Assembly (NCBI GenBank): GCA_030247885.1
Contig: JAPDRO010000003.1
Coordinates: 248,001 to 312,000 of the forward strand
DNA: 64,000 nucleotides
Reading direction: 5' to 3'
DNA from: Taxawa tesnikishii (nom. ined.)
Lineage: Eukaryota; Ascomycota; Dothideomycetes; Dothideales
A program made the translations under genes and the position numbers. How positions within the stretch are numbered: position 1 is the stretch's first letter; every line of letters begins with the position of its first letter. The notes beneath the pieces were generated by a model. That model saw only the letters and a program-made list of their open reading frames with translations, did not search any database and had not been told where the DNA came from. Shown in pieces: positions 23,884 through 62,417 of the stretch.

Positions 23884-23920
23884 CCTCATGAGGCTGTGGC
23901 CGCTTTTTTGAACTATTAGT

Positions 23921-23975
23921 TGAGCTTCACTTGAGATACACTTGAGCTGTACTATAAGTTCACTCAAGCTCGACT
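23921..23975. repeat. 11-bp-period degenerate tandem array A
   Basis: Five consecutive 11-mers: TGAGCTTCACT, TGAGATACACT, TGAGCTGTACT, ATAAGTTCACT, CAAGCTCGACT. It lies between a decayed ORF and the macrodomain gene. The same consensus recurs at five other sites in the window. Confidence 0.85.
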
Positions 23976-24231
23976 GGATTGTTCCCTCCGATCATTGAAT
24001 GGAACAGACGAGATCGAACGGTGCATTGAATGAAAAGGAGAAGATGAAGTTGAAGTGAGCATTGCGTGAAACAGCAATGCGTGATGTCAGTGGCCCGTGT
24101 GTACGCGACTTCCCAAATCGCATGTGAAAGTCGGGTCTTGCCTTTCCTCATGAGACAAGAGCAAAAACATCGACGCATTCTCTTCGTTCTCTTTCTTTCG
24201 TCGTCGCAACCTCTCTGGCCGTAGCAACTAC

Positions 24232-25149
24232 ATGCCACCGCTCTCCAGAATGGCGACCATCAAATCACTGAACGACATACCGACACTCACACTTCTCTAC
24301 AAGCTTGGCCGTCTCTCCCCAGCTTCGGCGACGCTCCAAGGTGCTAGTAGCGCCTACAACGACAAAATCAGCCTGATCCGCACCGATATCACCAAGCTCA
24401 AAGTCGACGTGATCGTCAATGCCGCGAACGAGTCTCTTCTAGGCGGAGGTGGTGTAGATGGTGCCATCCACCGCGCTGCTGGCCCGCAACTTCTGGACGA
24501 GTGCGAAACCCTCGACGGCTGCGATACTGGTGATGCTAAGATTACCAACGCGTACAATCTGCCATGCAAGAAAGTTATTCATGCCGTTGGACCAGTCTAT
24601 TACACTACGAAGCGTCAGGGCAAGCACACGTCGTTGCTGCAGTCCTGCTACAGGAAGTGCCTCGACCTGGCTGTGGAGAACAACTGCAAGAGCATCGCTT
24701 TCAGTGCCCTCAGCACTGGCGTCTACGGGTACCCAAGCGACGAGGCTGCGCAGGCCGCGAGTGAGGAAGTGAAGAAGTGGCTGGATACGCATGGCAAGGC
24801 GGATGAGATGGACAGGATCATCTTTTGCAGCTTCATGGAGAAGGACGAGATCGCGTACAACAAGGAGATCCCGCAAGTCAAGGTGCCATCGTATGTGAAT
24901 GTTCATCTTCGCTAACCGACACAGGAAACACTTCCTCCTGCTACAGAGGTACCTTCAGATGAGGATCGTGAGGAAGGCGGCGTGAAGCTGGATGAGTCCA
25001 AGACTGAGGCGAAGGACGAGGCCATGTCTCAGCTTCCGGACGCGCCAACTAACCAACCGGTGGCAGAGGGGCAACCTGAGGCTAAGAAGCTCAAGTCCAG
25101 CCATTCAGACACTGGGGACTTCGACAAAGTGACGAGATCTGAGCTTTAA
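24232..25149 (+). CDS. Macrodomain protein (MACROD/O-acetyl-ADP-ribose deacetylase type)
   Basis: Two exons, 24232-24876 and 24925-25149, total 289 residues. The macrodomain (about 40-215) shows the ADP-ribose pocket: [40 protein letters not shown] and the phosphate loop [10 protein letters not shown]. It should remove mono-ADP-ribose or hydrolyse O-acetyl-ADP-ribose. Exon 2 adds a charged, low-complexity tail ([20 protein letters not shown]). The splice is the weak point: the phase that keeps the tail open uses a GTCAAG donor joining EIPQ to ETLPPATEV, which aligns with the family's EIPKYFPPT; the better-looking GTATGT donor gives a short wrong-frame end. A second ATG at 24250 is an alternative start. 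Confidence 0.85.
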
Positions 25150-25673
25150 GTGAGGCACAGGTTCGGGTAGACCCATAACTGCAGCTGTACACCTCTGGCG
25201 GTCTTTGACATGCATGATGCGTAGTATTGGGATTCAGAGCATTGGCGTTGTCGGTATACCCTGGGCATGTCGAATCGATTACGAAAAGTTTTGCTTTCCA
25301 CTTTAATAATTGGGAGAAAATTGGAACCTCAATACAGTACTATGCAGAGATTGCCTCTCGATCGTAGACAGGTTTGCTAGACAGCAGGCATAACCAGCCA
25401 GCGTTCTGCTTCCACTCATCCGATCGCTTCTCGACTCAATATAGAGATATCACTATATGATGCGAGCAATGGCCCAGCGTAGATCAGGCTGATCAACGGG
25501 AGATTGACTCCACGTTCCGCGGCCTTCCCAACCTTGAGTCGCCTCGCAACCAGTCTTGTTGCCCGCGACCTAGACAACCTTGCACACTCTCACCCTTTCA
25601 TGTATATAGTAATGTTAATACAGTAATTCCTTCTCTTCATTTCCCAGTTTCTACATTTTCCTTGGTCGCGGCC
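25150..25673. other. Intergenic, no supported gene
   Basis: 524 bp between two forward genes; terminator of one and promoter of the next, nothing else recognised. Confidence 0.5.
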
Positions 25674-28600
25674 ATGAGTGCTCCGCAACGCCAGTTTGTC
25701 CGCACGCAGGACCCCACACTCACAACAGCCTTGGAAAGTCTGGGATCCGATTCCTATACTGCGTATCGGCTTGTCAGTCTCTATTTCTTGTTGACGGGAT
25801 TACGGAAACGAAAGAACTAACAGTTCTTACCAGAAACACGCCGACGCCGAACATGTTCACCTTACAACGCGCCGCTGCTTCGTAGGACCTATTCCGGAGG
25901 GCTGGCTCCGGAGCCACCGCAAGGAGTGGTATAAGCATTATCTACATATTCACCATTCTTCCAAGGCCCCAACCTTCTCCGCTGGCGACAACGTCAGCCA
26001 TCACCGGCGTATGACTGGCATCGACGCCCCTACATAAGGCCAAGCTTTCCACAGCCGGCCGATGTTAATGCAGAGGACAGAAGGAGCGATATTGAGGAGG
26101 AAGAAGAGGATGAGGAACTCGAGGATGCAGATTCGGACGAGGAGATTGTGACGGAACCGCCAGGCGCAGTGTCGATGCCTAGAGTTCTAACAAATCCGGA
26201 GGGCCAAATATTAAAGGAGGATGAGGAGGACGAGGGCAGGAGGAAGGAGCCCAATCCGGCACTATCTTCGTATACCACCGGTCCAGCTTCCTTTAAGACC
26301 GCCTTTCAGTCTCCGCCCTCTCCGGACAGCGCAAGGAATCTGCCACAGCCAGAACGAAAACAGATGGGAAGGGGGACATCGGCCGCATCATATGTTACAG
26401 CGTCTAATGGCTTGCTGGTACCTGGGGATGGCGCTGAGGAAGTGACGGATGACAAAGCAGACCGAAAGCGACGTAGTGAGTCGAAGAGGCGGAGTGTTCG
26501 GTTCGAAAATGGCGAGGAACCCACAGCAACTGGACCTCGGAACTCCTCTGTGGTGGACAGCAGTATAAGTGCTCTTACTCCAGACGCAGTACAGTCAGGT
26601 TTCAGTTCAGTCCGATCAACCACCTCCTTGCTTCGAGCACAAAGGTCAGATGCAGATATGTCTCAACAGGAAGCGGGGAGAACGTCGACACAGCAACTCC
26701 TGGAGTTAGCACAGATAGGCAGCAAGACGCTGCGCTGCAGCGTACCAACTCTACTCGCTCACAAGGTTCCCACAACGGCAATCGTAGAGCAAGCGAAAAC
26801 AGAGCCGGTCTAATACGGTTCAATATTCCGGACGTAAAGCCAAGCAAAACAGAATTGCAGGTCAAGGCGCGGTTGGCCCAGGTCGGACGAAGACGGCTTC
26901 CTCGTAGCTTAACTCGTAGCAAGTTGAAAGATGGCGAGATTGTGAAGATGGAAAAGATGCTCGTTCGCAAAGACATCGCTGCTGGGCAGGAACAACCTAG
27001 CGAAGATTACAATGAAAAGGACAGCCGCCGGGTCGAAGCTCGCACGGTCAAGAAATGGGCAGAGTTTATGGTGGTCTGCAGAGAGAGCCACGAGGACGAC
27101 GCGACAATGGTCTTGCAGATGTACAAGACGAGGGTCATCCCTGCTACCAATGAAAGCAAGACGAAAAAGAGAGCCACACATCAGCTGCTGCTCCACAAGA
27201 AGAAGATTAAGATCAATCTTTTCTCCGCTCTGGACAAGACCATCGTTCTTTGGGTGCCGAAGGAACTGGGGACTGAAATCTTCTTTTGCGCCCTCATGCG
27301 GGCTCGAACGCGGTGGAATGGTACAATTTCCTCCGAAGCGTGCTTGGGGCCGGGCGAGCGCAGACCCTACAGGTTAACATACCGGACCTCCGCGTGAGTC
27401 TCAGGCTCGAAAACCCGTTCGAGCAGTTGGAAGCTTCACAGGACCTCGCAGAAGCGGCGGAGGGAGATGAAAACGCACTTGCTCGGGTAGTTGAGGAAGA
27501 GCAAGCCATCGCAAGCCGCATAATTGATCGCTGTATCGAGATGCTTGCCAAGTCTGACGAATGGAACAATGTGTTGGCCCAGTGGACCAAGAACGATCGC
27601 GTGGGTCTAGCGTGGAAGCGGTACGACCGCCTGGAATGGATCCACGGAGCCAACGAGCGTAAGATGTACGGCACAATCGCGATGCAGAAGACACATGAGC
27701 TGGAGTTGCGGCCAAAACAACATTACCCTCTCGTCACGAAAGCGAAAGGCAAGACACTTCACGAACCGCCCCCTGTTGAGGGCTTCCTGATACGCTTGAC
27801 GTCTCAGAAGGGCAATGAGCAGAAGTTCGGGAAAATGTTCTTCAAGCGGCTTTATTTCACCACTCACAACCAGTATTTGCTCTTCCTGCGGCCCGCAAGA
27901 GCGCTGCCACCTCCACCGCCCAAGATGCCCATGTCGGAGAACTCCAAGATACCCTCTGCCAAGCAAATCGCGGATAAGATTCCCATCGTGTTTGCAGTCA
28001 ATCCATATCCTTTGCACGACGACACAGTCGCCTGGCTTGCACCGCACGGCGCATCCGAGGAAGATATCCGCAAGCATGACCAAGATGCCTACGATGAGGC
28101 GGAGCGAAACGTGCACGCTTTGCTCAACTGCGACGGCTTTATCAACATGTGCGACATCAAAAAGGTGCGTAAGGTACATCGCGGAGCTACACCTGCGGAT
28201 GAGCAGGTTGATGAGGGCTCGGATGTCGATTTCGACGCCGAAGTCGAGGACAGTCGTCACGATGACGGCAAAACGACCGAGTTCGACGACGACCGCACCT
28301 TCGAGCTGCTCATGCGCAACGGGCTGGTCGTACGCCTGCAAGCGTTCAGCAAAGCAACCAAGAAGGAGTGGATGAAGCGCCTGCGCGAGCTCGTCGAGTA
28401 CTGGCAGCACCGCGCGGCCGCCGACATGGAACTGTACAAGTCCGTACGCGCCCAAAACCTGCGCGATCTCAACATCAACGAGCGCGCGGAAGCGGACGTG
28501 GGCAGCTTCGCGCACAAATGGGAAGTCACGCGCTCCTTCGCCAGCCCGGAGCTGTACAACATGTGCGGCATCAGCAGCTGTCGCAGCATCCACATGTCGG

Positions 28601-29174
28601 GCCTGCTGTTCCGCAAGCCGCGCCGACACGCCACCTTCACGCGATGCCACGTCATCCTCTCGCACGGCCACCTGCTCATCTTCCAGGACACGCTCCGCAA
28701 GAGCACGGGCAAGAAACTGGTCCATATCCACCACGAACGCCTCGCCGCCATTGACCTGCACGACTGCTACCTCTACGCCGGCGCGACGACGGAGGCCGAT
28801 CTGCTCTACCAAAACCGCACTTTCGACAGCAGCATGCCGGGCAACAACGCGCTGCCGCGCATCTGGCTCGAGGACGGTTGGACCAGTGCCGACGAAGACG
28901 TCATGATGTGCTTTGCCATCTGGCAGGGCCAGCGCAAGGGCTGGTTCCGCAGCAGCCAGGACGTCGACGATGTCAAGGAGGGTCAGAAGGTGAGGGGAAG
29001 GGCAGGCAGAAGATCAAGAGGGTTGGGCAGTTGGGTGTGCCTGGTAGGAGTGTTGTGTTCAGAGCGAGGAGTAGGGCGGAGAGGGATCATTGGGTCTTGG
29101 CTATTGCGACGGAGATTGAGCGGTTGGGGACTCAGGAGGATGTTAGGGTCGTTGACGATGGCAAGGGGAAGTAG
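25674..29174 (+). CDS. SPO71: Spo71/Spo7-family sporulation PH-domain protein, frame broken four times
   Basis: Two exons (25674-25772; from 25834; 61-bp intron). Corrected length is about 1,147 residues. The N-terminus has the GPIPEGWLRSHRKEWYK landmark, then an acidic, disordered stretch. The Spo7_2_N-like domain includes LFSALDKTIVLWVPKELGTE and WYNFLRSVLGAG, followed by two PH-like regions (about 650-780 with FLIRLTSQKGNEQKFGKMFF, and about 900-1,130). S. cerevisiae Spo71 and S. pombe Spo7 act in forespore membrane growth. Frame is lost at CCCC 26027-26030, GGGG 26675-26678, GGG 27300-27302 and GGG 28980-28982; each is repaired by one more base of the same kind and restores conserved text (DAP-YIRPSF, QEAG-ENVD, ALMRG-SNAVEWYN, KEG-SEGEGKG). 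The call rests on remembered family motifs. Confidence 0.8.
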
Positions 29175-29643
29175 GATAGCAATGGAGTAGGGGTGAGCGT
29201 GGTGAGGAGGACATAGGTGCGGATGGGGATCATCTCTAGCATGGCGTTTTGTGGGTTCTAGGTGTAATGATACCACGGTGCTTCATTTCTGGTTCGCATC
29301 AACCCGTGCCATGTTTTCTATCGATAACTGGAAGCGAAGAGTTTACATGAGGCATTCGCATAACAACGCTCGAGTGAAGAAGGTAAAGGGCTCAAGTGAA
29401 GCTCAAGTAAGGCTCACGTAGAGCCGGGGTGTGCGCACATGGATCAGTGAATGTCTCACAGCAAACACTCTCTTCCGACGCTCAACGGAAGAGGGGAGTG
29501 CGGAATGCATCCCTGTCATCGCAAAACCCACGTCCTTACACATCCCGGACTCGGTAATGCCTAACGTGCAGAGGGATATCTCATTCTTGTTGTGTTCTAT
29601 CTAGCGGAAAGTCCTATCATACGTCATCCCCCGTGTGTATCGT
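29175..29643. other. Intergenic with repeat array
   Basis: 469 bp between convergent genes; contains array B. Confidence 0.5.
29368..29422. repeat. 11-bp-period degenerate tandem array B
   Basis: Five 11-mers: GCTCGAGTGAA, GAAGGTAAAGG, GCTCAAGTGAA, GCTCAAGTAAG, GCTCACGTAGA. This is the reverse complement sense of array A. It sits about 190 bp past the SPO71 stop. Confidence 0.85.
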
Positions 29644-30468
29644 CTACTGACCACGTCCAACAGCACTGAGAAAAGAGAGAATTAGTATGCGTATTGCCAA
29701 CTCCGACCTTTCGAGACTTACTTGTATCCATAAGCCGTCCCCCAAGTACCAACGCGTTGATTGCAGGTGAGGTCCCCAGTCTGGTTGAACGCATGGTCGT
29801 TGCTTGCAATCATCAGCCGGCGTTGTTTCCAGCTGCCCGAAAAAGGTGCGGAAGACTTACAAGTAGCACTCCCAGAATGGAGTCACGGTGCCGTAATCCT
29901 GCATCATCCACTGGACATAGACGAAATCACAGCTGCCAAGCTGGGCACATTGGGCCTTGCAGGTGGCGATGGCATCTTTCTGGCCGACGGTGGAGTTCAG
30001 GGCGAAGTTGGCGCGGACAGCGACATCGATGCATCCGTCCTGGGGACCGAAGACCTTGGTGAAGCTTGGAGCGGCAAGCGAGAGGGTTTTGGTCGCGGTC
30101 ACGGTCGACGTGGCAGTGGTGAGCCAGGTAGAGACGGGGGTGGTGGTGAGGACGACCTGGCCAGTAACGGTGACAGTCTTAGTGACGGTGTCGCAGGACG
30201 AGTCGGAAGCATCACGGCGGTCGCGGCGCAACGGAGCGTGTGCGACCACGCTGGTGGTCTTTGCGTGAGTGTATGTCGTGGTCGTTACTTCGGTGGTCTC
30301 CAAGACGTTGAAGACGGAGTAGATGGTCGAGATTGGGCCTGGGGCGGTGACGAAAGAGGACACGATGTCGACCGAGGTGACGGTGACGGTGCTAGGGGAG
30401 CATGATTGGGCATATACTGTCGAAGAGAGCCCAAGGGCGATCAACGCTGTGGAGAAGATGGCCTGCAT
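29644..30468 (-). CDS. Secreted Thr/Val-rich protein, unknown
   Basis: Three exons: 30468-29861, 29802-29722 and 29665-29644, with introns of 58 and 56 bp; 236 residues. The ATG at 30468 opens a signal peptide (MQAIFSTALIALGLSSTVYA). A Ser/Thr/Val-rich zone with TVTVTS, TTTTYTHAKT and a possible dibasic processing site (LRRDRRDAS) precedes a compact C-terminal domain of about 75 residues with cysteines in DGCIDVAV, ATCKAQCAQLGSC, FWECYF and LTCNQRVGTWG. Exon joins WECY-FNDHAFNQTG and AYGY-NAVGRGQ keep the phase. The layout is that of a small secreted fungal protein. No enzyme motif is present. Confidence 0.72.
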
Positions 30469-31713
30469 TGTAGAGGAAATCGAAAACGGACGAGGGGTAG
30501 CAGTTGTAACGTAAGCTCCAGAGTAACGAATGGAAATGCTCGGACGCAGTCCGGGGCAATGCTTGTGGAGTGAGAAAGAGATGCAGCGCAACGCCGGGAT
30601 GCTGTGAGTAGTGATGATCACAACTGAAAAGAGCAAGAAACAACCTCAGCTATATCACCGAACACCTGCCACAGCAAACATCCATTGACGCACAATATCG
30701 GATCCCCTCATGGCATTCCGGTGGATGCCACTTTGGCTAGACTTGATTCTTTTCCCGCGTTAAGGACGAACGTGGAAACCATCCGCATCGCGGCGGCATC
30801 CTATCATCATTTTACTGTCTCCCACGGTCAGCGGGAGGCTTGCAGTGGTGAAACTTGCAGGTGCTGGCATACGCAAGGAAGCAAGCCTCAACGGACCGGC
30901 GGGTCGGCTAGAATGGTGCTGGATACGATAGGAGAGGTCGCTGTGATGTCCGCGCAAGCGGAGGCGGACCGTCAACTGGCTACCAGTCGTGCGGTCAGTG
31001 CGGTCAGGTACGAGAGCTTGTTAGGAGCGATCTGTTCTGGGCAAAAACGTGCCTCGAGGGCCGGGATGATCCTGGTTTGGGCGGTGCGATATTGAGTCCA
31101 AAATGGCCGTTCCACTGCAGAAGAGCGGAGCAGGGTCGTCGACTTAGGTATCACACCAGCGCAGATGCGGTCTAGCATGCGGCGTGAAGAAGACGTCCGC
31201 TTGCGCAAGCCGTGTCCGTCTCTTAATCCTCCACGACTCCCAATTGGCCAGGCTCGATCCTGCTGCCAGGGCACTTCCCGTCCCTAGAAGCCATCCGTGC
31301 CGAGGGATGTCGTGTTTGCACGGCGGCACGTCGTCAACGGCTGTCACATCTGTGAGTGCGTGAAACGATTGTGTTACATGTACAGGAGCCAACTTCCTCC
31401 TTTCTTTGCCGAAGTCCAAGCTCTCGTTGCGGCTCCACAAAATCCGTGCTCGAATAGTGCTCCTCGTACCACGTGAAATATGAAGAGCCGGGATACGCAG
31501 GCTGATCTGTGACGATTGAAACTAGCAAGTGCCAAAATGTACATGCATATGCATATGCACACAACAACTATATATGGGCATGCATGTCTGCCAATTTAGC
31601 CATGAGCGGACCCAACCATTATTTCCTGTTTCCCAATCAACACTTCAGCCAGATACGATCCACCTGTACGGTTCAGGACGGCCCACGACCCGCCTTTCGA
31701 TAGTCTATGGAAG
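30469..31713. other. Intergenic, no supported gene
   Basis: 1.2 kb with only unconvincing frames. A palindromic ACATGCATATGCATATGCAC lies at about 31540-31560. Confidence 0.5.
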
Positions 31714-42764: not shown

Positions 42765-43991
42765 CTTGAATATGGATCGACGCCAATTCGCAGGTTAAAC
42801 TACTCACGTCAGACGCTCGACTTCAAAGACTTGACAGCCGCGCGAAAGCCGAGTAACTACACGAGGGTATCGAGCACAGAAAGAAAAGACAAATGTACCT
42901 AGCAGAATCTGGGAGACATCTGACATCCTCGGCCTACTTGTACGTGACTTACATGTGGATCTACCAAGCGCCTGCATCAGGTGGTTGGTTTAGCCCGATG
43001 GGCGCGGAGGGGTAGCATGTAACAGACGGAGAATTTCCCACCGAGCCATGCGACGTCGAATCAATGCAGGTACGCAGGCGGTAAACTGACTCCTGCTGGC
43101 CACAACTTCTGCCATTCTCGTCGAGAGGACCATTTTCTCCGGCCGAGAAGACACGATGTCTATGGCTGCGTGAATTGGTGGTCCGGTCAGGAAGGCAACG
43201 GAGGTTCTCCGCATTGGTATGGCGTCTTCTCAATCTCGACATTATACTCTACAACCGGACGTACCGATCCAGACAGACTGTTCGGGAGTGAAAGTGAATA
43301 CAGCAGAAGCCCTTTTGTTCAGAGGATATGACATATGAAACAGACTCCAGTTGAAGATGGTCGAAAGAGCTATAGAGATAGAGCAGTATAGGAATCTTCG
43401 GCGGCAGCCGCCCCGGTTTTCCGGTAACAACTTCCCCTAGCTCAAATGCGCGAGTCATGCCCATACTAGACTCAAATGGGTATGCACGAAGCAGACAGCA
43501 ACTATGATCGCTCTATAGAGTAGGGCTTCCTTTGAGCTCTGACATACTATCCTATTGCTGCGATAACTGAAAGCGATCAGCCGAAGTGAAGCTCCAGTGA
43601 AACTTTCACTGGAGCTCAAGTGGAGTATTCAGAAGTCTGCCGGCAACCACTGATCGAAAGTCGACATGACGTTTGATCCTTCAGCTGCTTCGAAGAACTG
43701 TTTTTCACGCATGGTTCTCTCCAACGACACGATTATACCATCCGCCATGAGGAGGCTTCCCAGGTTTTCGTGGTGGCGCGGATGCGAGCGGCTACATCTA
43801 TGTGCCACTGGTTCATTGACCGCCCAGCCAGCAGTTTTCCGGTCCTTATGAGCATGCTGTTAGCGAACCCAATCAGGGATTCTTCCATCCATCTCCTGAA
43901 GTGGGAGCACTGTGCCATTTGCCAACCTGGCAAGCGCTCGTTCCCTTATACGGCGGGAATACTCTCATCTCTTTTCACATCCTCACATCTC
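42765..43991. other. Intergenic with repeat array
   Basis: 1.2 kb with no credible gene; contains array C with a perfect palindrome. Confidence 0.5.
43580..43623. repeat. 11-bp-period degenerate tandem array C
   Basis: Units GCCGAAGTGAA, GCTCCAGTGAA, ACTTTCACTGG, AGCTCAAGTGG. The third unit is in the opposite sense, and together they make a perfect 27-bp inverted repeat at 43590-43616 (AGCTCCAGTGAAA, one C, TTTCACTGGAGCT). Confidence 0.8.
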
Positions 43992-44857: not shown

Positions 44858-45361
44858 TATGTACGAGATGTGTCAAGAGTTCCTGCGGCTGAAGTTCAAT
44901 CTCTATGCGTGGTCTGGTTTTGTTAATGAAAGTCGAGTGAAATGCGAAACCACATAGAGACGCGGGGTTACTTGTGTAGATAAATAGGGCTGATAGGGCT
45001 GACGTTTTGCATGACTCGCGTCAATATCACATGCCGAGAGGTTCTGGTGAGCATACATACATGTGTTGCGCCTACTATCCGTGTCCACTACAAATCGAAA
45101 GCGAACAACTCTCGAAAGAAGCCCGAGCGAGGCTGAGGTGAAGCCTGAACGATGCTCAGACGAAGCCTGGATAAGGCTTGAGTGGACCTTGACTGAACTA
45201 CCGACAATCGTTCACTCCTGAAGTACCAATGAAACGGGGCGTTACGGTTTCGAAAACGGCAAAAATGGCAGTCAAATCAGTGCTTGCAGTACAACGCCAC
45301 ATATGTAGCAAATGGGTATTTCGTGACAAACATCCGAACAGTCCAGCAAATGACCAGTGAC
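44858..45361. other. Intergenic with repeat array
   Basis: 504 bp between the LOT5 start and the transporter stop; contains array D. Confidence 0.5.
45110..45197. repeat. 11-bp-period degenerate tandem array D
   Basis: The clearest long copy: TCTCGAAAGAA, GCCCGAGCGAG, GCTGAGGTGAA, GCCTGAACGAT, GCTCAGACGAA, GCCTGGATAAG, GCTTGAGTGGA, CCTTGACTGAA. Eight units keep an exact 11-bp phase over 88 bp. Confidence 0.88.
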
Positions 45362-52158: not shown

Positions 52159-53595
52159 TCTGTGGTGAACTGGCAGCGGTGGGTCGATTGGTGCAAACGG
52201 AAGCGAAGAGAGAAAATTGTTCGTAGAACCAACAATGACATTGCCATGAGAAGAAGGCGTGTTCAGGTTGACCTGAAGATGCGTTACTGGGTTGTCTTGT
52301 GGGCGAGCGCGGCTCGCATGATCATTGCTCGACTGGGAAAAGGTGGATTGGGAAGTTGTCAGACTCGCTGCCTGCTCCGATGTATCGCAGCGAAGGCCAT
52401 TAAGTTTCGGCGGGCATAGAGTTGGGTCCCCTGAGAAATGTGTGGTGCTGGCTGCAGGGAACGTTGTTAGCGGCGATGCTTGACAGTTGCCAGCTCATAC
52501 AGCAGCGCGCAGCGCATAGCCTGTGATCTGCAGGGCGCTGATTGGCCGAGACATGCTGCACGAATGGCAACTCGGAACGACGTTATTGAATAGAACATAC
52601 AGCACGCAGACGCTGCCGGCAAAGGAAAGCGAGAGGCCTCGCTCATTGCATTCTGTTGCCAGCAGCGTTACGTCTCACCCGACGAAGGATCCTGGTAAGC
52701 TCGCGGCAACGAGCATGGAGAGAGAGAGACTCGAGGTGCGTGCGGTACAAACCCACAAACCCCTCTTTCGGCTATCGGTAAACAGCCGTATCCAGTCCGT
52801 CCGGGTTGGGACTGTTGTTTTGTGCGACGGAGCAGCTGGAGATTGATGGGAAGGGGCCAGTTGAAGCGAGTATGTCTGAACCGCGGGTATGCGACAAGAA
52901 AACAAATGGTATGGCTGATGCAAAGTTCGGGGACGTTGGAGGAGGAAGATGGTGGCTGTTGGCCCTCAAGGCATCACATGCGTGGGAAATAGCTGGCATG
53001 GCTTGCATGAATGGTTCCAGCGAATGAACGTCCAACGCGGGGATGGCCGGACACAGGGTGTGCCGCACTACTCGTTAGCACTGACATCCCACAGGTCGGA
53101 CGCTCGCTGGCAGGAAACGCTTTTGGTCTTCTGCATAGCACTATCAACGTTGCATTCGGTGCGTGAGCGAAGTGACTTCTCAAATGCTGGCCGGGTCCGG
53201 GTCCGGCCCATGCATCCAGAAAGTTCCAAGTTCCACGTTAGCAAGCTGCCAGCGCAGCGCTTCGTGTGCGGTGGACATTGCATTTGCGCAATTGTTGGCT
53301 TCTCCAAGCAAGCTATTTGATCGTGCTCCATGACAGGCTACGTTGTGCGTGGCCGGTTCTGCGGCCACGTCGACTAGACTTCAAATGGGAAAGCACCGCA
53401 CAGCTAGCCGCTGACGCTTGGCGAATAAGGCGACGGCGCTCATTTCCACACCACGGCGTCCCTCACCCTCCCATCGAAGTTTATCTTCCAAACTCCAAGC
53501 AGTTATAGCAGGGATATCTAGTGAGATCGCACAGAATCTGGGTCGTGTGGAACCACTCTCCGGGTTACCGGAGCCAGTGATTGAAGGGTGTCTGC
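52159..53595. other. Intergenic, no supported gene
   Basis: 1.4 kb holding only short frames without family resemblance on both strands. Confidence 0.45.
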
Positions 53596-54922
53596 TCAGC
53601 TCATCGCACTCCTCAACATGGGCGCGACCTGCTTCCTGCTGCAGGAGACATTCTTCTGCCGCCACATACGCAAGTACAGCCCGTCCTCTTCTTTGCCGTT
53701 ATCGTCTTCCAGTTCTAAGTCAGAGCCTTTGCTATCTGCGAATTTTTCGAGCACCTTTTGACCATCGGAGTGCGAGCTCATCGTTAGCAACTCTCTCGAG
53801 AATGCTCCATCTTCCGAGGTAAATGCTGTCATGATCGCAAAGACCCCCAGCTTCCTCTCCTTCGCAAACTTCTTCAGTGCGTTGACGAAGGCCTCGTTGC
53901 TTCCTTCTCCGCCCTCGTCTTGTGCCTTGCTCCGTAGAAAACTTAGCGGCTTCACGATAGAACTCATGCCGAGGTTCATGCCATTTTCCGTCCACTGCTT
54001 GTAATCCTTCCTCAGAATGTCCCTCAACGCAAGAGAGTCAAGGTCCTTCTTGGCTTCGTTGATCTTCTCAAAGAAAGTATCTCTTTGGAAGTCCTTACTC
54101 ACTTTTCCGCACAGCCCAATCTTCGCTTCGAGGAACTCGACCGCTTTCCTGTCGTGATCCTTGGTCTTGTTTTCGTCCTTCAAGTTCATCGTATCAATCA
54201 GTATAGATGCCATCGCTAGCTGTGCCACCTGTGCATCCCACAGGGCAGCCACCGCACTGTCGTCCGTAAGCGTATCGCCTTGTGCGTGAGCGGCCCCGAC
54301 GATGATGTACCCAGAGAAAGCCTTTCCCATGCGTCTCGACAGTAATTGGTGACGAGACTGGTGCAACTTCCGCTAGCCGTGATGATGCGTGGCTCATCGC
54401 CTGTGTCCTTGAGGACTTTGCCTTCGTCCTCATGATGGTCTATGACGCCCACAACACGGTGAGAGTAGGTGGATCCCAGAACACCTTGAAGGGCATTGTG
54501 GTCTACTAAGATCCAGCGCGTTGACTCTGGGGACAACTCAGACTCAATGTTCGGTAAACTTGGTAGGTCGTCAAGCGTGATGAGATGATCAGACTCCACG
54601 TTTGCATGCGGTAACAGAGCCAGCAGCTCCGGTCGTAGAGCGATATCAGATTTGGGGATGTTCAGTACAGGGATGTAGAGATGGGCTGGAGACTTTGATC
54701 TTGGAGCAATGGATTGTATGTATGAGAACAGTATCGAGCATGTGATGGAGTCGAGGTCTGTCCGGAAATTAGCTCTGACCCCTGTTTTGATGTTTCCGGC
54801 TGCAGACCTGCAGACTCATTTCCTATCACTAGCGTGACAGTGTCTTTTCTGGAGATGGATGTCTTCAAGCTGCGTTTGGCATGGCTTAGGAAAGCCCTCA
54901 ATGAGTTCCTTGCAAATGCCAT
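53596..54922 (-). CDS. PPX1: Exopolyphosphatase PPX1 (DHH family)
   Basis: Two exons, 54922-54808 and 54757-53596 (50-bp intron), 425 residues after correction. The ATG at 54922 (MAFARNSLRAFLSHAK) is the first in frame. Metal-binding motifs of DHH phosphoesterases are NESADLDSI (split by the intron), STRWILVDHNAL, and VVGVIDHHEDEG. The DHHA2-type C-terminal domain ends LYLRMWRQKNVSCSRKQVAP. The enzyme removes terminal phosphate from inorganic polyphosphate in cytosol or mitochondria. Frame is lost at plus-strand CCCC 54294-54297: LGTSSSG passes to AAHAQGDTLTDDSAVAALWD only if a fifth base is present. It diverges from the methyltransferase gene across 208 bp. Confidence 0.92.
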
Positions 54923-55130
54923 GGTCCGTGGTCCAAATGACTTAGACAACAGCTGTATCAGTTGTATCTGTTCTCCAACGGTCCAAAGACAAGATACTTT
55001 AGGGAGGATTCACACGAAATATCCCACTTCCAAATGACATCATCCTATACAGCGGAAAACTTCCGTGTACAACCACACTATACATTTTTTCCAACCGTCT
55101 CCTCTGCCGTTCATTCCACCAAACCTAATC
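54923..55130. promoter_or_regulatory. Divergent promoter PPX1 / methyltransferase
   Basis: 208 bp between the two start codons. No specific element can be asserted by eye. Confidence 0.45.
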
Positions 55131-56398
55131 ATGCCGTCCGAAGACCCCAATGCCGAGCTCTCACGTGCCGAATACTGGGACAAACGCTACAGCGACAATG
55201 CGCCGTCTTACGACTGGCTCCGAAACTTCGACACCGTGAAGCCGTTCTTGACCAAACACCTCCCGCCCGCATCCTCGGCACCCAAAATCGTGCACATGGG
55301 CAACGGAAATAGCGTATGCAGACCTCAGCTGTTCCCTTGTTGACTTTGTTCGATACCCGCAATGCGAGCTTGGTTCAAGAAGTCGGAGGAAGACTGATCG
55401 AGGCGCATCATCCACAGTAGACTCTTCCAGCCTCCCTTCTCTCGTTGCCAGACTCCTCCTACACTTCCCAGACAGCGATCGACTTCTCACCGGTCGTGAT
55501 CGCGAACATGAGCGCCGCACACCCGGGGATCGAATGGCGCGTCATGGACATCCGAGCGCTCGAGTTCGCGAACGGAAGCTTTGATGTCTGCATCGACAAG
55601 GCGACGCTCGATGCCATGCTGTATGGTAGTCTATGGGATCCGGAAGATGAGGTCAGAGACAATGTTAAGAGATATGTGGACGAGGTACGTAGGAATTTCC
55701 ACACAACACGCAGCGGTAGTGCAACTGGGAAACAGTGTTCTCGACGGGTCAGTCGAGGTAAGGTGCTCGAGGCTGTTGCATGGTAACAGGGATGTCCCCC
55801 TCTTGCACAGATAAAGCGCACATGCACATGGCCGCCTTGTTCCAGTGACAACTCGGGAAGTAGGATGTTGCTGGTACACGATCCAAGCTTTGCTCAAACC
55901 TCACTTAAGCTTCGTTTTGGCATCGTTTGGACTTTACTTGAGCTTGACTCAGGCTTCACTTGAGCTTTAGTTAATCACTTGGGCTTCACTTATGGCTGGA
56001 GGACGTCGAGAGAAGCATAGGCGATCGTTGAGGGAAGAACACGTGACAAGGCAAAGCAAACTGTTCGTACCTATGAGAAACGACGGTAGTGAGAACAGCA
56101 AGGGTAATCGCCGCTTGATTGAGAGCAATTGGACGTGTAATGACCGACTGTTGAGAACACTGACCCACTCAGAGAATGCGTGGTTGAGGAGGAGATGGGT
56201 GAATGCAGCAGCTAACACGCAACAGATCGCACGAGTGCTGAAGCCAGGCGGACTCTGGCTGTACATCACATGGCGCCAACCACACTTCATCCGGCCACTG
56301 ATCCAGCGTCCGGAGGTATGGAGCGTGGAGGTCGAGACGTTGGCAGACGGAGGGGTATGTTCGAATACTTTGGGTTCGTCATGAGGAAGAAAGGGTAA
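55131..56398 (+). CDS. METTL13-type SAM-dependent methyltransferase
   Basis: Three exons: 55131-55313, 55421-55684 and 56226-56398; about 206 residues. The N-terminus AEYWDKRYSDNAPSYDWL and the SAM motif I KIVHMGNGNS are those of the METTL13/ECE2-like group, with D-x-x-x-L motif text MDIRALEFANGSFDVCIDKA TLDAML following and VLKPGGLWLYITWRQPHF near the end. The motif I reads MGNGNS where LGCGNS is usual. Members methylate eEF1A or related targets; the target here is unknown. The second intron is 541 bp, ten times the norm, and carries repeat array E. The frame is lost at GGGG 56352-56355: ADGG continues as MFEYFGFVMRKKG only with a fifth G. Confidence 0.85.
55884..55990. repeat. 11-bp-period degenerate tandem array E (intronic)
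   Basis: Units include CAAGCTTTGCT, CAAACCTCACT, TAAGCTTCGTT, TTGGCATCGTT, TGGACTTTACT, TGAGCTTGACT, CAGGCTTCACT, TGAGCTTTAGT, a shortened TAATCACT and TGGGCTTCACT. About ten units, the longest array here, inside the oversized second intron of the methyltransferase gene. Confidence 0.88.
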
Positions 56399-56769
56399 TC
56401 TGCTCTAACCGACGAAAAAAACGCATTGCGCATGACACGTCGCTGAGGCGTAAAGAAGGGGTTCGACGTTGGTACGTGAGGATTTTGATTATGCCGGTCT
56501 ACATGCGCCCTAACTCCTCCCATAGGCCCCTGAGGCCGCATTGGGAATGCCGAGATTAGGGTACGTCACCCCGGGCTCCAGACATAAGTATTACGGGGAA
56601 GACACGGAACAGAGGACAGGAGAAGAAGAGAAAAACAGGAAAAAGAAAAGAGGTATCTCTGCGCAAATTCCACGTCCAGACCAACCAATCTGCCCCGAGT
56701 AACATTCCATCAAGTCTACAGCAGAAGCAGAAGCATGAAAAAGCCATGCCGTCACTGTCGGCCACTCTC
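56399..56769. other. Intergenic, no supported gene
   Basis: 371 bp between the convergent methyltransferase and septin genes; purine-rich, no gene. Confidence 0.5.
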
Positions 56770-58133
56770 CTAGCGACGTCCATGCGAGCGCGTCACGCTG
56801 CCCTGCAGGCCCTCGACCTCGGCCTCGAGCTGCTTGATAACGGCGTGACTCTGCTCGAGATCCTTGTTGAGACGGTCGCGCTCGCTGATGAGCTTCTGCT
56901 CCCACTGGCGGAATCGCTGCTCTTCGACCTTGACCTGCTCGGTGAAACGCTTCCGCAGAGCCTCCTCCTCTTCCTTGAACTTAGGGTTGTCCAGCTTTCT
57001 CGGTCTGGCCTCGCCGAACTTTCTTGTTTCCATCTGCTGTGCGCGGTAGGCTTCGTAGTGCTGCTCCTCGGTGGTGTGGATGAGATCAAGCATGTGAGTG
57101 CGTATCAGGATAGAGCGCAGCTTCTTGAAGTCACAGTGGTCCTCGTTCTCGACTTCAGCAACACCCCAGGCATATTGGCGACCCTTGACGCTGCGGCCGT
57201 CGGCGGTTTGCACGTCCTTCTCGGAGCCGATGACGGAGAAGGGCATTGCAGCGATGAGTTGACGAGCGTGTGCAAGAGCTGGCTCGTCGTCTTCCTCAAG
57301 TGGTGGCTGGTAGATCCTGATGCCTTGCGCCTCGATCACAGCCCGTACTCTATGCTTGAACCTCGCCAGGTCATGTGGGCTGAGGGTGTCGGCCTTTGCA
57401 ACAACGGGAATGAGGTTCACGCGAGTGCACAGGCGCTTCATGACCTCGATATCCAGCGGCTTCAAAGTGTGTCCGGTAGGTCTGATGAAGTATAGGCAGG
57501 CGTGAACACGGAGGTCGACCTTCTCGGTACGGCGTGGCTGCTGCTCCTGAAGCATGTAGGACTCATGCTGGTCGTCCAGGAACTCGATGATTGGTTGCCA
57601 GGAGTCGCGGTTGTTCACGTAGTCGCCGAATCCAGGGGTGTCAATGACAGTGAGGCGGACTGCAGATTACGACGATCAGCGATGTCGTCCAACCCGTCAA
57701 AAGTTTCGATAGGCGCACCCTTGAAGAACTTCTCTTCCAACTCCGCCTTTGTGATCTCAATCTCCACAGTCTTGTCAACCTGCTTGGCATGGCGGCGTCT
57801 GTGGTCTGCGTAGTTCTTGATGGTGGTGGAGAAGAGGGTGTTGATGAAGGTGGTCTTTCCAAGACCGGACTCGCCAGCAACCTATTCTCTTGTCAGCATT
57901 GAGCAATGTGGAGAGAAGTGATTTGACGGACCATTATCGTGAAGGCGGCACCGCGCTTAGCAACGATCTTGTGACTGTGTTCGAGTTAGTTTCTCCTGGC
58001 ATGGCGGTCCACTCGACGATGCGCATACCGCTGGTTGGGAAGCTGGGCAAGTGGTCAGCCAGAGCGAGCAACATGCCGGACATTTCTCGTTACTCACATT
58101 GGCAATGCCAATCGGGGATGCTGATTCGGCCAT
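56770..58133 (-). CDS. CDC12: Septin Cdc12 (AspC orthologue)
   Basis: Five exons: 58133-58098, 58042-58029 (14 bp), 57974-57932, 57881-57719 and 57659-56770; introns 50-59 bp; 381 residues. The spliced start reads MAESASPIGIAN-LPNQ-RHKIVAKRGAAFTIM-VAGESGLG. GTPase motifs: P-loop GESGLGKTTF, DTPGFGDYVNN, and AKADTL. The text FLDDQHESYMLQEQQPRRTE and ALRKRFTEQVKVEEQRFRQW matches yeast Cdc12 closely and separates it from Cdc3, Cdc10 and Cdc11. A C-terminal coiled coil (about 310-370) is normal for Cdc12. It polymerises into septin filaments at the septum and hyphal tips. No frame damage. The 14-bp exon is unusually small. Confidence 0.95.
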
Positions 58134-58442
58134 GGTCCGGTATTGTTCGAGAGCTCTCTGGATGGGGTCGTTTGGGAATGTGCTAAGGACTGGGAAAGGG
58201 AGCGTTAGTATGTTGTGTATTACAACACCAGATGCAAGCCTCGAACCTGGAAGAGGAGACTAGTAAAGACTGAAGCGAGCGAAGGAGATGTGGTGTACAA
58301 GGAGAACGAGCAGATGCAGGAAACGGTCAATGTTCAACAGACCCTGTCGCGCTGTACATGTGCCTGAGAAAGTGCGGAGCGCAGGAAACACACACTTGCG
58401 CTTGGCGGTGGAAAGGAGAAGGCACGCGCTGAACTTACCCGC

Positions 58443-58474
58443 GTTGGCATTGGCATTGGCATTGGCATTGGCAG
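58443..58474. repeat. Hexanucleotide repeat (TTGGCA)n
   Basis: About five units of TTGGCA in tandem, read directly, within the CDC12/PWP2 spacer. Confidence 0.85.
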
Positions 58475-58524
58475 GGGTCGACGAGCCGATCTGAGTGGCT
58501 CGAGCGACACGGCCACTCAAACCT

Positions 58525-58559
58525 CGACCCTGGCCCTGGCCCTGGCCCTGGCCCTGGTC
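58525..58559. repeat. Hexanucleotide repeat (CCTGGC)n
   Basis: About five units of CCTGGC in tandem, read directly, 50 bp after the first repeat. Confidence 0.85.
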
Positions 58560-58722
58560 GTTTGCGGGGAAGGAAGAGGAAGGTGCCGGCATCGAAGATA
58601 ATCTTTGCGGGAGTGACGTTCCGAAGGTCGGAAAAATAATTCTGTTCGATTTCACGACTGCCTTCGCTGCGGTATCCGGACGCCGTGAAGGAGTTTGGCC
58701 CTGTCGCAGAGAGTGTCGCAGG

Positions 58723-61535
58723 ATGAAGACCGATTTCAAGGTGCGCACATTCTTTATCGTCGCCCTGCGCCTTCCCTTCACTTTACTTACTTTCTTCACC
58801 TCGCCTGCAGTTTTCCAATCTTCTTGGCACAGTATACCGCAGAGGGAATCTGTGCTTCACCCCGGATGGCACCTGCCTGCTGTCGCCTGTAGGCAACCGC
58901 GTCACTGTATTCGACCTCGTAAAGTACGCGACACGACATCTTACGCACCATGAACACGGCGCATTCTGACAGTCACCAGCAACAAGTCCCACACCTTGCC
59001 CTTCGCTCACCGACGCAACATAGCTAGACTTGCTCTAAACCCTCGGGGAACCTACTTCTATCTGTCGATGAAGACGGCCAGGCCATCCTTACACATGTTC
59101 AGCGGCGAATCTCTCTATACCACTTTACCTTCAAGGGCACCGTCTCCGCCCTAGTCTTCTCTCCCTCGGGACAACACTTTGCTGTCGCGTTAGGACGAAA
59201 GATCGAGACATGGCGGACACCTTCGACGCCTGGAGAGGATGAGGATGGCGGACTGGAATTTGCGCCGTTCGTGAAGCATCGGGAGTACGTGGGCCACTAC
59301 GACACAGTCCAGAGCATCGAGTGGTCGAGCGACTCGCGCTTCTTCTTGAGCGCATCGAAGGATCTGACGGCAAGAGTATGGAGTTTGGATCCCGAGCAAG
59401 GCTTCACGGCGACTACCTTATCTGGACACCGACAAGGCGTTTATGCGGCATGGTTTTCTGCGGATCAAGAGACTATCTGGACAGTGTCGAAGGATGGAGC
59501 GCTCTTCCAATGGGGTTATCTACCCCCGAGGAATGCGCCCGAAACCGACAACCCAATCGATGCAGAGGAGAATCTACGATGGCGGATTGCTGAACGACAT
59601 TATTTCATGCAAGGCCAAGCGCACCTTACATGTGCAGCGTTCCATGCAGATTCGAATCTGCTTGTTGCCGGATTCTCAAACGGCACGTTCGGCTTGTACG
59701 AGCTCCCGGATTTCAACCAAATACACAACCTCAGTATATCCCAGAACGATGTTGACTTCGTAACGATCAACAAGACTGGTGAATGGCTTGCATTCGGGGC
59801 TTCGGCTCTCGGTCAGCTGCTTGTATGGGAGTGGCAATCGGAGTCTTATATCCTGAAGCAGCAAGGCCACTTTGACTCTTTGAACTCACTAACATACTCT
59901 CCTTCAGGCGATCGCATCATCACCTGCGCCGACGACGGCAAAATCAAAGTCTGGGATGTAGCCTCAGGCTTCTGCATAGTAACTTTCACCGAACACACCT
60001 CGGGCGTTACGGCCTGCGAATTCGCCAAGCGTGGCAACGTATTATTCACAGCTTCTCTGGATGGCTCAGTCCGTGCGTGGGACTTGATTCGATACCGCAA
60101 CTTCCGCACCTTCACCGCACCCTCTCGCCTCTCTTTCTCTTCGCTGGCCGTGGATCCTTCGGGAGAAGTCGTCGCAGCCGGATCTCTCGATGACTCCAAT
60201 ATCCACATCTGGTCCGTTCAGACCGGCCAACTGCTGGATCAGCTGGCCGGTCACGAAAGTCCAGTCTCTTCCCTTGCATTCGCACCGAACGGCAGCGCTC
60301 TGGTTTCTGGATCGTGGGACCACACTGTCAGGATATGGTCTGTCTTTGCACGCACACAGACTAGCGAACCGCTCCAGCTACAAGCGGATGTCCTATGTGT
60401 GGCGGTACGGCCGGACTCGAAACAAATTGCTGTTAGCACACTCGACGGACAACTTACGTTCTGGTCACTATCCGAGGGCACTCAAGAAGCCGGTTTCGAC
60501 GGCCGTCGTGATGTCTCTGGTGGGCGGAAGCTTACCGATCGCCGCACAGCCGCAAACGCAGCCGGGACAAAGGCTTTCAACAGCATCAACTACAGTGCTG
60601 ACGGCAGCGTAGTGGTCGCTGGGGGAAACAGCAAATATATCTGCCTCTACGACGTCGGCTCTGGTGTCCTGCTGCACAAGTACACTGTCAGTGTCAACCT
60701 TTCGCTCGAAGGTACACAGGAGTTCCTCAACAGCAAGAACCTCACCGAAGCCGGACCTCGCGGCATGATCGACACACAGGGTGACGCATCCGATCTCGAG
60801 GACCGCATCGACAAGTTTTTGCCCGGCGCCAAGCGTGGTGATGCGGCGCAGAGACAAACCGGACCGGAAATCAGAGTTCCCGGCGTCGCATTCGCACCCA
60901 CCGGACGCGCTTTCTGCGCAGCGAGCACGGAAGGGCTACTCGTATACAGTCTCGACACCACCGTGGCCTTCGATCCGTTCGACCTCGACATCACCGTCAC
61001 GCCGGCATCGACACTGAAGACGCTGCAGCAGAAGGATTACCTGAAAGCTCTCGTCATGGCCTTCCGGCTGAACGGTCCCAAGCTGGTCACGCGAGTGTAT
61101 CGCGCCGTGCCTCCGGCCGACATCGCGCTCCTGGTCAAGGATCTGCCCCTCGTGTACCTCGAGCGGTTGTTGCGGCACATCGCGCAGCAAGCGGACGGAA
61201 GCCCGGCGTTGGAGCTGAACCTCCTCTGGCTCGAAGTGCTGCTCAAGACGCACGGAAAGGTGTTGAAGGACAGGCAGGGCGAGTATGCGGAGGTGCTGAG
61301 GATGGTGCAGAGGGCAGTCGGCCGGATCCAGAAGGAGATCATGGCGGTTGCCGAGGGCAATGAGTTCATGGTGGAGTACTTGCTTGCTCAGCCGAGGAAG
61401 AGCAAGGATGCCGACTTGAAGAGAATAGAGTTGGTGAAGGCGGGCGCGGGAGCCGAAGAAGCAGCAGCAGCAGCTGTGGATGAGGATATGGAAGACGGAG
61501 ATGAAAACGAGGAGGAGTGGATCGGACTTGATTAA
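58723..61535 (+). CDS. PWP2: PWP2/UTP1 WD40 protein of the SSU processome
   Basis: Three exons: 58723-58740 (18 bp), 58811-58923 and 58980-61535; 895 residues after correction. The spliced start MKTDFK-FSNLLGTVYRRGN is diagnostic. Twin WD40 propellers fill about residues 10-680 (GHYDTVQSIEWSSDSRFFLS, GDRIITCADDGKIKVWD, GSALVSGSWDHTVRIW). The Utp12 domain follows (FDPFDLDITVTPASTLKTLQ, RLNGPKLVTRVYRAVP) and an acidic end (DEDMEDGDENEEE). It scaffolds the UTP-B complex on 5'ETS pre-rRNA in the nucleolus. One frame loss: GGGG 59045-59048 must be five G to give NPRGNLLLSVDEDGQAIL, matching yeast. Splice VFDLV-NNKSHTLPF uses the acceptor at 58979. Confidence 0.95.
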
Positions 61536-62417
61536 TGTAACTGTGCTGATAGAATCTTTATACCCTGGCCCCCGAGGCAAACAGTTTTCATAAGGCGCGA
61601 GTGAAACTGGAGGGAGGCTGAAGTAAAGCTCGAGCAGTTGAAGGTCGAGTGAAGCTAAAGCGAGGGGTTTAAATGAAACTTGTTACAAAGATTGAATAGG
61701 GTCCGGTCCACACGCCCTCAGGAATGACGACAATATGGCTCTGCACAGGAGCTCTATACAGTCGCTACAAGACTATACTGGAATTGACAACATCAGACGT
61801 CGAGGCAACTTTTTCCATCACCTCTAGAGTTTCGAACTCCGATCATGTCTGGACGCGATTCTCCATCAGGCCCGATCCAGCGTGGATCGATAAAGCTCAA
61901 ATGCAAACACCCAACGCCGCACTGCGGTACCCCTATGTCAAAGGCTCGGGTACCGCAGACGCTATTGTCGGCTTCCTCAATGGTCTCATTGTTCCGCAGG
62001 GCAGGATGGGAAGCCCCTATGCTGTCAACAGTAGAAAAATTCAAACGTGTGTTTCCGAGATTAGTAGGATAAGATGGTACGACATCGTTGGATAGCGAAA
62101 GCACATTTATACCAGAAAGGCGGACACCTCTCAAACGGGTTGGGAAATCTCGAAGAATGGGGTACGAGTAAGGCTATCTAGAAACAGCGCAAACAGGCAA
62201 GCTCTTGTCCAATAACCTCACACGAAAACCAAACAAAAGATGAAGAGAAACCAAGCCTCAATCATGACAGAATTCATAACAGTAACTCATTCAAACGCCA
62301 GACTTGTGGAGCTGTGTGAACGTGTAAGCATACATCCACCGAAAGTTTCTCACGAAGGAAAATTTACCCAAAGTGACATCTCGTGTCCACCGATAACGGG
62401 GAGTGTATGTCCGTGTA
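61536..62417. other. Intergenic with repeat array
   Basis: 882 bp between convergent genes; contains array F. A forward frame of 123 codons at 61724-62095 has no family resemblance and is left out. Confidence 0.5.
61595..61671. repeat. 11-bp-period degenerate tandem array F
   Basis: Units GCGCGAGTGAA, ACTGGAGGGAG, GCTGAAGTAAA, GCTCGAGCAGT, TGAAGGTCGAG, TGAAGCTAAAG, CGAGGGGTTTA. It begins about 60 bp past the PWP2 stop and shows one phase slip. Confidence 0.75.

What the first reader, a model, noticed from the sequence alone, without database searches (positions are those of the whole stretch)
23921..61671. A dispersed family of degenerate 11-bp-period tandem arrays (consensus about TGAGCTTCACT)
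Six sites (23921-23975, 29368-29422, 43580-43623, 45110-45197, 55884-55990, 61595-61671) carry 4-10 tandem units of 11 bp sharing one consensus, in either orientation. Period is kept even where bases differ, so spacing rather than exact sequence seems conserved. None is coding: five lie between genes, one in an intron. Eleven bases is close to one helical turn. I know no named fungal repeat with this unit. They could be remnants of a spreading minisatellite, protein-binding arrays, or curved DNA near 3' ends.
Basis: seen in the sequence. Interest (0 to 1): 0.78.

Follow-up and report, generated by a model that had tools for sequence, protein, structure and literature searches.

The report
Decayed hairpin-like repeats in fungal DNA
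Six stretches of non-coding fungal DNA carry the worn remains of one short dispersed repeat, built from an 11-letter unit and apparently arranged as two facing arms like a small mobile element; this is real but probably fossil DNA and not a working device.

Summary
All six arrays match one 11-bp consensus far above chance: wraparound scores 31-66 (F in two pieces), against a best of about 21 in the part of the shuffled-control output I could see. Profiles built without each array find it again at 15-36 bits (best in ten shuffled windows 6.5). All six lie outside my approximate gene models. Array E lies in a 541-bp intron of a methyltransferase gene.

The arrays do not look like bare minisatellites. 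On their 3' side lies a second, weaker run of the same unit in the opposite orientation: summed score 86.1, against 56.6 +/- 5.1 for permuted units (0 of 400 reach it). The other three side/orientation sums are at chance. The arm is nominally significant for A, B, C and E, weak for D, absent for F. D and E also share unit order (p=0.003, best of 15 pairs).

Changes are even over columns 3-11 (p=0.47) and not RIP-like. Curvature gives no general signal.

Best reading: old, decayed copies of a short (about 105-180 bp) non-autonomous foldback/MITE-like element whose arms were tandem 11-mers. No target-site duplication or transposase was seen. No fungal genome could be searched, so copy number and name stay open.

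The parts
23902..23978 (+). Array A, about 5-6 units; 18 bp lie between the stop codon of the upstream + strand reading frame and the array
   Evidence: score 51.3; TRF period 11; stop at 23881-23883
24045..24079 (-). Weak facing arm of A, 66 bp 3' of the array
   Evidence: score 17.0, p=0.004
29366..29424 (-). Array B, about 4-5 units, between two apparently convergent genes
   Evidence: score 39.6; TRF period 11
29322..29337 (-). Block TCGCTTYCAGTTATCG 3' of B, shared with C (15 of 16 bases) and in part with D
29278..29303 (+). Weak facing arm of B, 62 bp 3' of the array
   Evidence: score 14.1, p=0.024
43577..43625 (-). Array C, about 3-4 units, with internal 13-bp perfect palindrome 43590-43602 / 43604-43616
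   Evidence: score 34.1; inverted repeat
43561..43576 (-). Shared 3' block next to C
43519..43538 (+). Weak facing arm of C, 38 bp 3' of the array
   Evidence: score 15.2, p=0.008
45110..45197 (-). Array D, 7-8 units; 164 bp lie between it and the 3' end of a permease-like gene on the - strand (last exon inferred)
   Evidence: score 40.6; TRF period 22; gene:
45091..45108 (-). Block resembling the shared B/C block, next to D
   Evidence: 2 mismatches to TTGTTCGCTTYCRATTAT; 3 hits in window, shuffles mean 0.06 (the pattern was written from these same loci)
45018..45054 (+). Possible weak facing arm of D (not significant alone)
   Evidence: score 11.5, p=0.12
55685..56225 (+). 541-bp intron (GTACGT...CAACAG) of a methyltransferase gene; contains E
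   Evidence: PDB 2pxx alignment runs across the junction; Pfam methyltransferase on exon 2
55884..55993 (+). Array E, about 9-10 units, longest and best kept
   Evidence: score 65.7 for 55886-55976, further units to 55993 after a 3-bp gap; TRF period 11
56006..56046 (-). Weak facing arm of E, 12 bp 3' of the array
   Evidence: score 19.9; none of 3000 null draws reached it (null maximum 17.4)
55733..55745 (+). Left half of a 13-bp inverted pair (12/13) around E inside the intron; may well be chance
56150..56162 (-). Right half of the same inverted pair
61591..61671 (-). Array F, about 5-6 units; 55 bp lie between the stop of a PWP2/UTP1 gene and the array; no facing arm found
   Evidence: scores 30.9 and 25.5 in two pieces; gene; arm p=0.59

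Best explanation
The six sites are old, decayed copies of one short dispersed non-autonomous element of roughly 105-180 bp. It consisted of two facing arms made of the same 11-bp unit, one arm longer (5-10 units) and one shorter (2-4 units). This is the plan of a miniature foldback/MITE-type DNA transposon. Shown by calculation: the common consensus, a second weaker run in facing orientation (as a group; individually in four of six), and decay without constraint specific to columns 3-11. Inferred: that the copies were spread by a transposase in trans acting on the repeated arms, that insertion favoured introns and intergenic DNA (or was tolerated only there), and that all copies are now dead.
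For: Common consensus at six separate non-coding loci in both orientations. A facing second arm 12-66 bp 3' of the array: summed score 86.1 against permuted-unit mean 56.6, sd 5.1, max 72.2, 0 of 400; 0 of 200,000 sums resampled from 1,200 random non-coding draws. Sums for the three other side/orientation classes are at chance. Profile hits to the held-out copy run past the array edge in 5 of 6 (A 51 bp, B 58, C 34, E 25, F 18; D none). A 15-of-16 block is shared beside B and C, with a related block beside D. On the 3' side A-D exceeds all 147 null draws and B-D has p=0.007, among 30 flank pairs. D and E share unit order in register 0, p=0.0033. Units are star-like: intra-array identity 0.601, inter-array 0.585, p=0.18. 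Mismatches are even over columns 3-11 (p=0.47). The intron holding E is 541 bp.
Against: No target-site duplication above chance. General homology of the flanks is at most borderline (five 3' sides p=0.058, five 5' sides p=0.275; 500-bp flanks at the edge of the null). Of the three whole elements folded as single-stranded DNA, A has z -2.3, B 0.3 and E 0.7; C and D were not folded. F has no second arm and D's is weak. D/E is the best of 15 pairs (about 0.05 after correction) and the combined test over all pairs is not significant (p=0.31). The shared block searched with up to 3 mismatches is not more frequent than chance (2 hits; 24 of 100 shuffles have as many). The 13-bp inverted pair around E would arise by chance in roughly one such intron in ten (my estimate), more often over the six regions searched, and is not seen at other arrays. 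No transposase source is known. The four flank classes were examined after the fact, and profile alignments can overrun array edges by chance.
Confidence: 0.48

Rival explanations
1. A dispersed minisatellite without transposon structure: an 11-bp tandem sequence was copied to many sites (for example by break repair or circular-DNA insertion), sometimes twice in opposite orientation, and then decayed.
For: Shared consensus with little flank homology; star-like units; no target-site duplication; C shows local inversion.
Against: As a group, only the facing 3' class of second runs exceeds chance; the sums of the other three do not, though single values there reach p=0.049 (B, 5' same) and p=0.032 (C, 3' same). 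A shared block lies beside B, C and in part D. D and E share unit order.
Confidence: 0.25
2. Arrays of binding sites for a helical-phase DNA-binding protein (insulator, terminator or repressor), kept or regained by selection at an 11-bp spacing.
For: Period near a helical turn; quasi-palindromic unit; uneven column conservation overall (p=0.003), which comes from columns 1-2; array divergence of about 0.35 substitutions per site (my K2P estimate by hand counts) is large for DNA that survives in a compact genome; the five intergenic arrays each have a gene's 3' end on at least one side (approximate models).
Against: Columns 3-11 are equally variable (p=0.47). Single units outside the arrays are not enriched in the consensus register (16 with up to 2 mismatches against 14.6 for permuted units; the other ten rotations, 16-27, were counted without a control). 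Orientation and distance to genes are mixed. E lies in an intron. Curvature is ordinary in 4 of 6.
Confidence: 0.15
3. RNA-level elements: structured 3' UTR or intron segments, or small-RNA precursors.
For: Against dinucleotide shuffles all six fold better than average in the consensus direction (z A -3.3, B -1.9, C -3.6, D -1.6, E -2.1, F -0.5). By my approximate models each array is in the sense direction of at least one adjacent gene, which would often happen by chance.
Against: Against arrays sampled from the unit profile only C stands out (z -3.2; A -1.5, F +2.0); Stouffer z -1.1 sense, -0.5 antisense, so most of the folding comes from the unit itself. No Rfam match at gathering thresholds.
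Confidence: 0.05
4. Chance or selection of look-alike stretches by the first reader.
For: Units are only 73% identical to the consensus; C is weak in one test (rank 2).
Against: Markov controls and leave-one-out tests, and consensus-free TRF for four of the six.
Confidence: 0.02

Closest known systems
Tm1, a Mutator/Foldback family of Meloidogyne nematodes (PMC3169594, passages read)
   Same: Composite inverted terminal repeats made largely of a variable number of short tandem units (13-15 bp), differing in length between the two ends; MITE-like members; apparently inactive and decaying
   Different: Here the unit is 11 bp with another sequence; Tm1 has defined end motifs and 9-bp target-site duplications, neither of which was found here; no transposase-encoding copy is known here
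Galileo and the Drosophila Foldback element (PMC3573991, passages read)
   Same: Long, internally repetitive inverted repeats whose length varies by tandem-repeat dynamics
   Different: Those elements are much larger (recalled) and Galileo is placed in the P superfamily by its transposase; the present copies are about 105-180 bp with no coding part seen
Fungal introner-like elements (PMC4457414, abstract and outline read)
   Same: Dispersed repeated sequence that can lie inside an intron of a filamentous fungus and that degenerates
   Different: Introner-like elements are themselves introns; 5 of 6 copies here are outside genes and E occupies only part of its intron
Interspersed-homology recognition in repeat-induced point mutation, Neurospora (PMC4858203, passages read)
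   Same: An 11- or 12-bp period figures in homology sensing in one set of tests
   Different: The tested systems used several hundred base pairs, and in other conditions of that paper 10 bp worked best and 11-15 bp gave little or no effect. RIP leaves C-to-T changes; here the four transition types occur at similar rates per site (one search counts)

Membership tests
Foldback / MITE-type DNA transposon | Inverted (facing) terminal arms | tested here: met
   As a group: 3'-opposite arm sum 86.1, 0 of 400 permuted units. Individually p<0.05 in 4 of 6 (A, B, C, E); D p=0.12, F p=0.59. That the arms are terminal is inferred, since the ends are not known
Foldback / MITE-type DNA transposon | Arms composed of short tandem subrepeats (foldback type) | tested here: met
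   Strong arms: 6 of 6. Weak arms are only 20-41 bp
Foldback / MITE-type DNA transposon | Target-site duplication | tested here: inconclusive
   Best 8-mer matches of 6-7 in 5 copies tested equal the null (6 or 7 in 288 of 300); ends are not known to the base
Foldback / MITE-type DNA transposon | Multiple copies with the same ends | tested here: inconclusive
   Block shared by B and C, partly D; 5' sides p=0.275, 3' sides p=0.058
Foldback / MITE-type DNA transposon | Mobility (empty sites, related transposase) | not testable with these tools
   No fungal genome is held; a PWP2 protein scan of viral contigs, meant to reach fungal DNA, found no relatives
Introner-like element | Element is itself a spliced intron | tested here: not met
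   5 of 6 lie outside my gene models; E with its arm fills about 30% of a 541-bp intron
RIP-mutated repeat | Excess of C-to-T / G-to-A over the reverse | tested here: not met
   T>C 26, C>T 18, G>A 14, A>G 13, near-equal per site
Known structured RNA family | Match to an Rfam model | tested here: not met
   0 matches at gathering thresholds in the window

The most novel reading that the evidence does not exclude
The family is kept, not dead: an 11-bp-phased array with a facing second arm is a dispersed chromosomal module of this fungal lineage, for example a docking or insulating site whose spacing rather than base sequence is selected, seeded across the genome by a former mobile element.
Probability: 0.08. 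Interest if true: 0.75.

Novelty: new variant of a known kind. Interest (0 to 1): 0.36.

Why it matters
If the density seen here (six in 64 kb) held genome-wide, this fungus would carry thousands of copies (extrapolation from one window). They would be a repeat family too degenerate for ordinary repeat finders: Tandem Repeats Finder at low threshold reports only fragments of four of the six. Such fossils date bursts of mobile elements, may explain oversized introns and 3' flanks, and could give RIP, recombination or chromatin proteins a dispersed substrate with near-helical-turn phasing. As single loci they are probably inert.

Tried and rejected
RIP decay: rejected on the substitution spectrum. 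My own idea that columns 1-2 vary because the ancestral unit began with a hypermutable CpG is weakened by a window CpG ratio of 0.95. RNA structure: rejected except for the C palindrome. Long flank homology: A-D (above all 147 null draws), B-D (p=0.007) and B-F (p=0.014) on the 3' side stood out of 30 pairs; B-F is discounted because F's flank there is coding, and the group test on five copies was borderline (p=0.058), so I do not rest on it. B-E left-flank alignment runs into an exon; treated as chance. Inverted pair around E: not found at other arrays. Target-site duplications: null. Positional signal between arrays: only D-E of 15 pairs.

Other sources: two viral-contig pattern scans and one viral-contig protein scan gave no usable relative. 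The one genome-contig scan, with an exact 22-mer, gave a 2.6-copy run in an intergenic stretch of a Burkholderiales MAG contig (L001), which I judge to be coincidence by local tandem duplication.

Literature: ten searches in all. Five were for the unit or for short tandem arrays in fungi, one for introners (35), two for RIP homology sensing (44, 47) and two for foldback elements (56, 64). Nothing describing this unit appeared. The nine papers holding the 11-mer string look from their titles like unrelated work, and I opened none. The one paper holding '11-bp repeat' and 'fungus' (PMC10085805, S. osmophilus genome) was seen in the listing only. PMC9659126 (TEs as a source of tandem repeats) was seen in passages.

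Rows dropped before counts: F was left out of the five-element alignment, the flank group test and the target-site test, because its 3' side runs into coding DNA; it was scored as a target. Partial units at array ends and inserted bases were dropped in the 34-unit statistics. Exon 3 of the methyltransferase gene was given to Pfam in the wrong frame (0 families), so that row says nothing; one search used the right frame.
Full report
What was checked. The window is taken to be nuclear DNA of a filamentous ascomycete. That is my judgement from gene content (PWP2, septin, GH31, ICln-type and DHHA2 genes with short introns), not a tool's assignment; the species is unknown and no genome is held. Wraparound dynamic programming against repeated TGAGCTTCACT gave 51.3 (A, 23902-23978 +), 39.6 (B, 29366-29424 -), 34.1 (C, 43579-43625 -), 40.6 (D, 45111-45197 -), 65.7 (E, 55886-55976 +) and 30.9 plus 25.5 (F, 61591-61634 and 61635-61665 -). 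In order-3 Markov copies the best value in the visible output was about 21. Tandem Repeats Finder sees A, B and E with period 11 and D with period 22, not C or F. Leave-one-out: 5 of 6 rank first and C second. Profile scores for the held-out copy were A 20.1, B 18.5, C 16.0, D 15.2, E 35.8 and F 19.5 bits; the all-copy profile's best hit in ten shuffled windows was 6.5.

Placement. A begins 18 bp beyond a stop codon. B lies between two apparently convergent genes. C lies between an ICln-like gene's 3' end and the GH31 gene's 5' end. D lies between a permease gene's 3' end and the ICln-like gene's 5' end. F begins 55 bp beyond the PWP2 stop. E lies in a 541-bp intron, 55685-56225 (GTACGT...CAACAG). 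The joined exons keep frame and align across the junction to PDB 2pxx, E=1e-18, and Pfam reads exon 2 as a methyltransferase. All gene models are mine and approximate; several neighbours have no Pfam family.

Anatomy of the unit. Over 34 full units, identity to the consensus is 73%. There are 71 transitions and 29 transversions: T>C 26, C>T 18, G>A 14, A>G 13. Per site these four rates are nearly equal (0.18-0.21), which is not the mark of RIP. Mismatches per column are 16, 17, 8, 6, 5, 8, 6, 11, 9, 10, 4. Heterogeneity is significant (p=0.003) but comes from columns 1-2; columns 3-11 are even (p=0.47). Units within an array are no more alike than units of different arrays (0.601 against 0.585, p=0.18), and neighbours are no more alike than others (p=0.82). 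This looks like a star: one homogeneous ancestor, then independent decay. K2P distance to the consensus, computed by hand from these counts, is about 0.35, so the copies are old, or the ancestor was already uneven.

A second arm. In 150 bp on each side of each array, in both orientations, I scored the best run of the unit. On the 3' side in opposite orientation the scores were A 17.0 (p 0.004), B 14.1 (0.024), C 15.2 (0.008), D 11.5 (0.12), E 19.9 (none of 3000 draws) and F 8.4 (0.59). Of the 18 other values two were nominally below 0.05: B 5'-same 0.049 and C 3'-same 0.032. The 3'-opposite sum, 86.1, exceeds all 400 permuted units (mean 56.6, sd 5.1, max 72.2). The other three sums are ordinary: 143 (5' same), 127 (5' opposite) and 70 (3' same) of 400 permuted units reach them. 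Against random non-coding places the sum was never reached in 200,000 resamplings of 1,200 draws. The four classes were examined after the fact, which costs a factor of four. From array start to the far end of the weak arm the copies measure 178, 147, 107, 180 and 163 bp in A to E. Two facing arms is what an inverted-repeat element looks like from either arm.

Common descent. Profile hits to the held-out copy continue beyond the array edge in 5 of 6, though such overrun can be chance. B and C share TCGCTTYCAGTTATCG (15 of 16) on their 3' side and D has a related block. The joint pattern occurs three times in the window, only beside these arrays, against 0.06 expected in shuffles, but it was written from these loci; the B/C block alone, with up to 3 mismatches, is not more frequent than in shuffles. 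D and E match unit by unit from their first unit (mean 7.4 of 11 in register, 6.1 out of register, p=0.0033; best of 15 pairs, combined p 0.31). Wider flank homology is not established: 3' sides p=0.058, 5' sides p=0.275, despite single high pairs (A-D, B-D).

What did not hold. RNA folding beats dinucleotide shuffles to some degree in all six but is no better than in arrays drawn from the unit profile, except C. Single-strand DNA folding of whole elements A, B and E gave z of -2.3, 0.3 and 0.7; C and D were not tried. Curvature is unusual in 2 of 6. There is no target-site duplication above the null in the five copies tested. Single units in the consensus register are not enriched outside arrays. 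A 13-bp inverted pair encloses E in its intron (55733-55745 and 56150-56162). It begins CAG, as some hAT-type ends do (recalled), but no other array has it.

Interpretation. Together these favour decayed copies of a short, two-armed, tandem-built element of the foldback/MITE plan. The closest described anatomy I could read is Tm1 of root-knot nematodes, with terminal repeats built from a variable number of 13-15 bp units and unequal arms (PMC3169594, passages), then Galileo (PMC3573991, passages). Membership is not proven: ends, target-site duplications and transposase are missing. A plain dispersed minisatellite remains the main rival, and a selected binding array a lesser one. The link between 11-bp period and homology sensing in RIP (PMC4858203, passages) is suggestive only: the same paper found 10 bp best and 11-15 bp nearly inactive in other conditions, and the mutation spectrum here speaks against RIP having acted.

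Prior art. Five of my ten full-text searches were for the unit or short fungal tandem arrays and found no paper on it. The library lacks most subscription papers and no repeat database was available, so an existing name cannot be excluded.

Noticed in passing
window 43590-43616: Perfect 13-bp inverted repeat with a 1-bp loop inside array C, although array units are on average about 27% diverged; it may be a recent template-switch correction of a quasi-palindrome.
   Followed up: partly
window 56226-56400: The last part of the methyltransferase gene next to array E seems to change reading frame near its C-terminus (judged from recalled relatives); an unrecognised intron, a sequencing error or a damaged gene.
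   Followed up: no
window 16756-17871: Secreted-looking protein with internally duplicated cysteine-rich modules; 17120-17299 and 17357-17536 are 70% identical DNA. No Pfam family.
   Followed up: no
L001 7819-7847: A Burkholderiales MAG contig has 2.6 perfect copies of CTTGAGCTTCA between genes, the same 11-mer as here up to rotation; judged coincidence.
   Followed up: partly
window 58444-58557: Two perfect 5-copy hexanucleotide repeats (TTGGCA and CCCTGG) close together upstream of the PWP2 reading frame.
   Followed up: no
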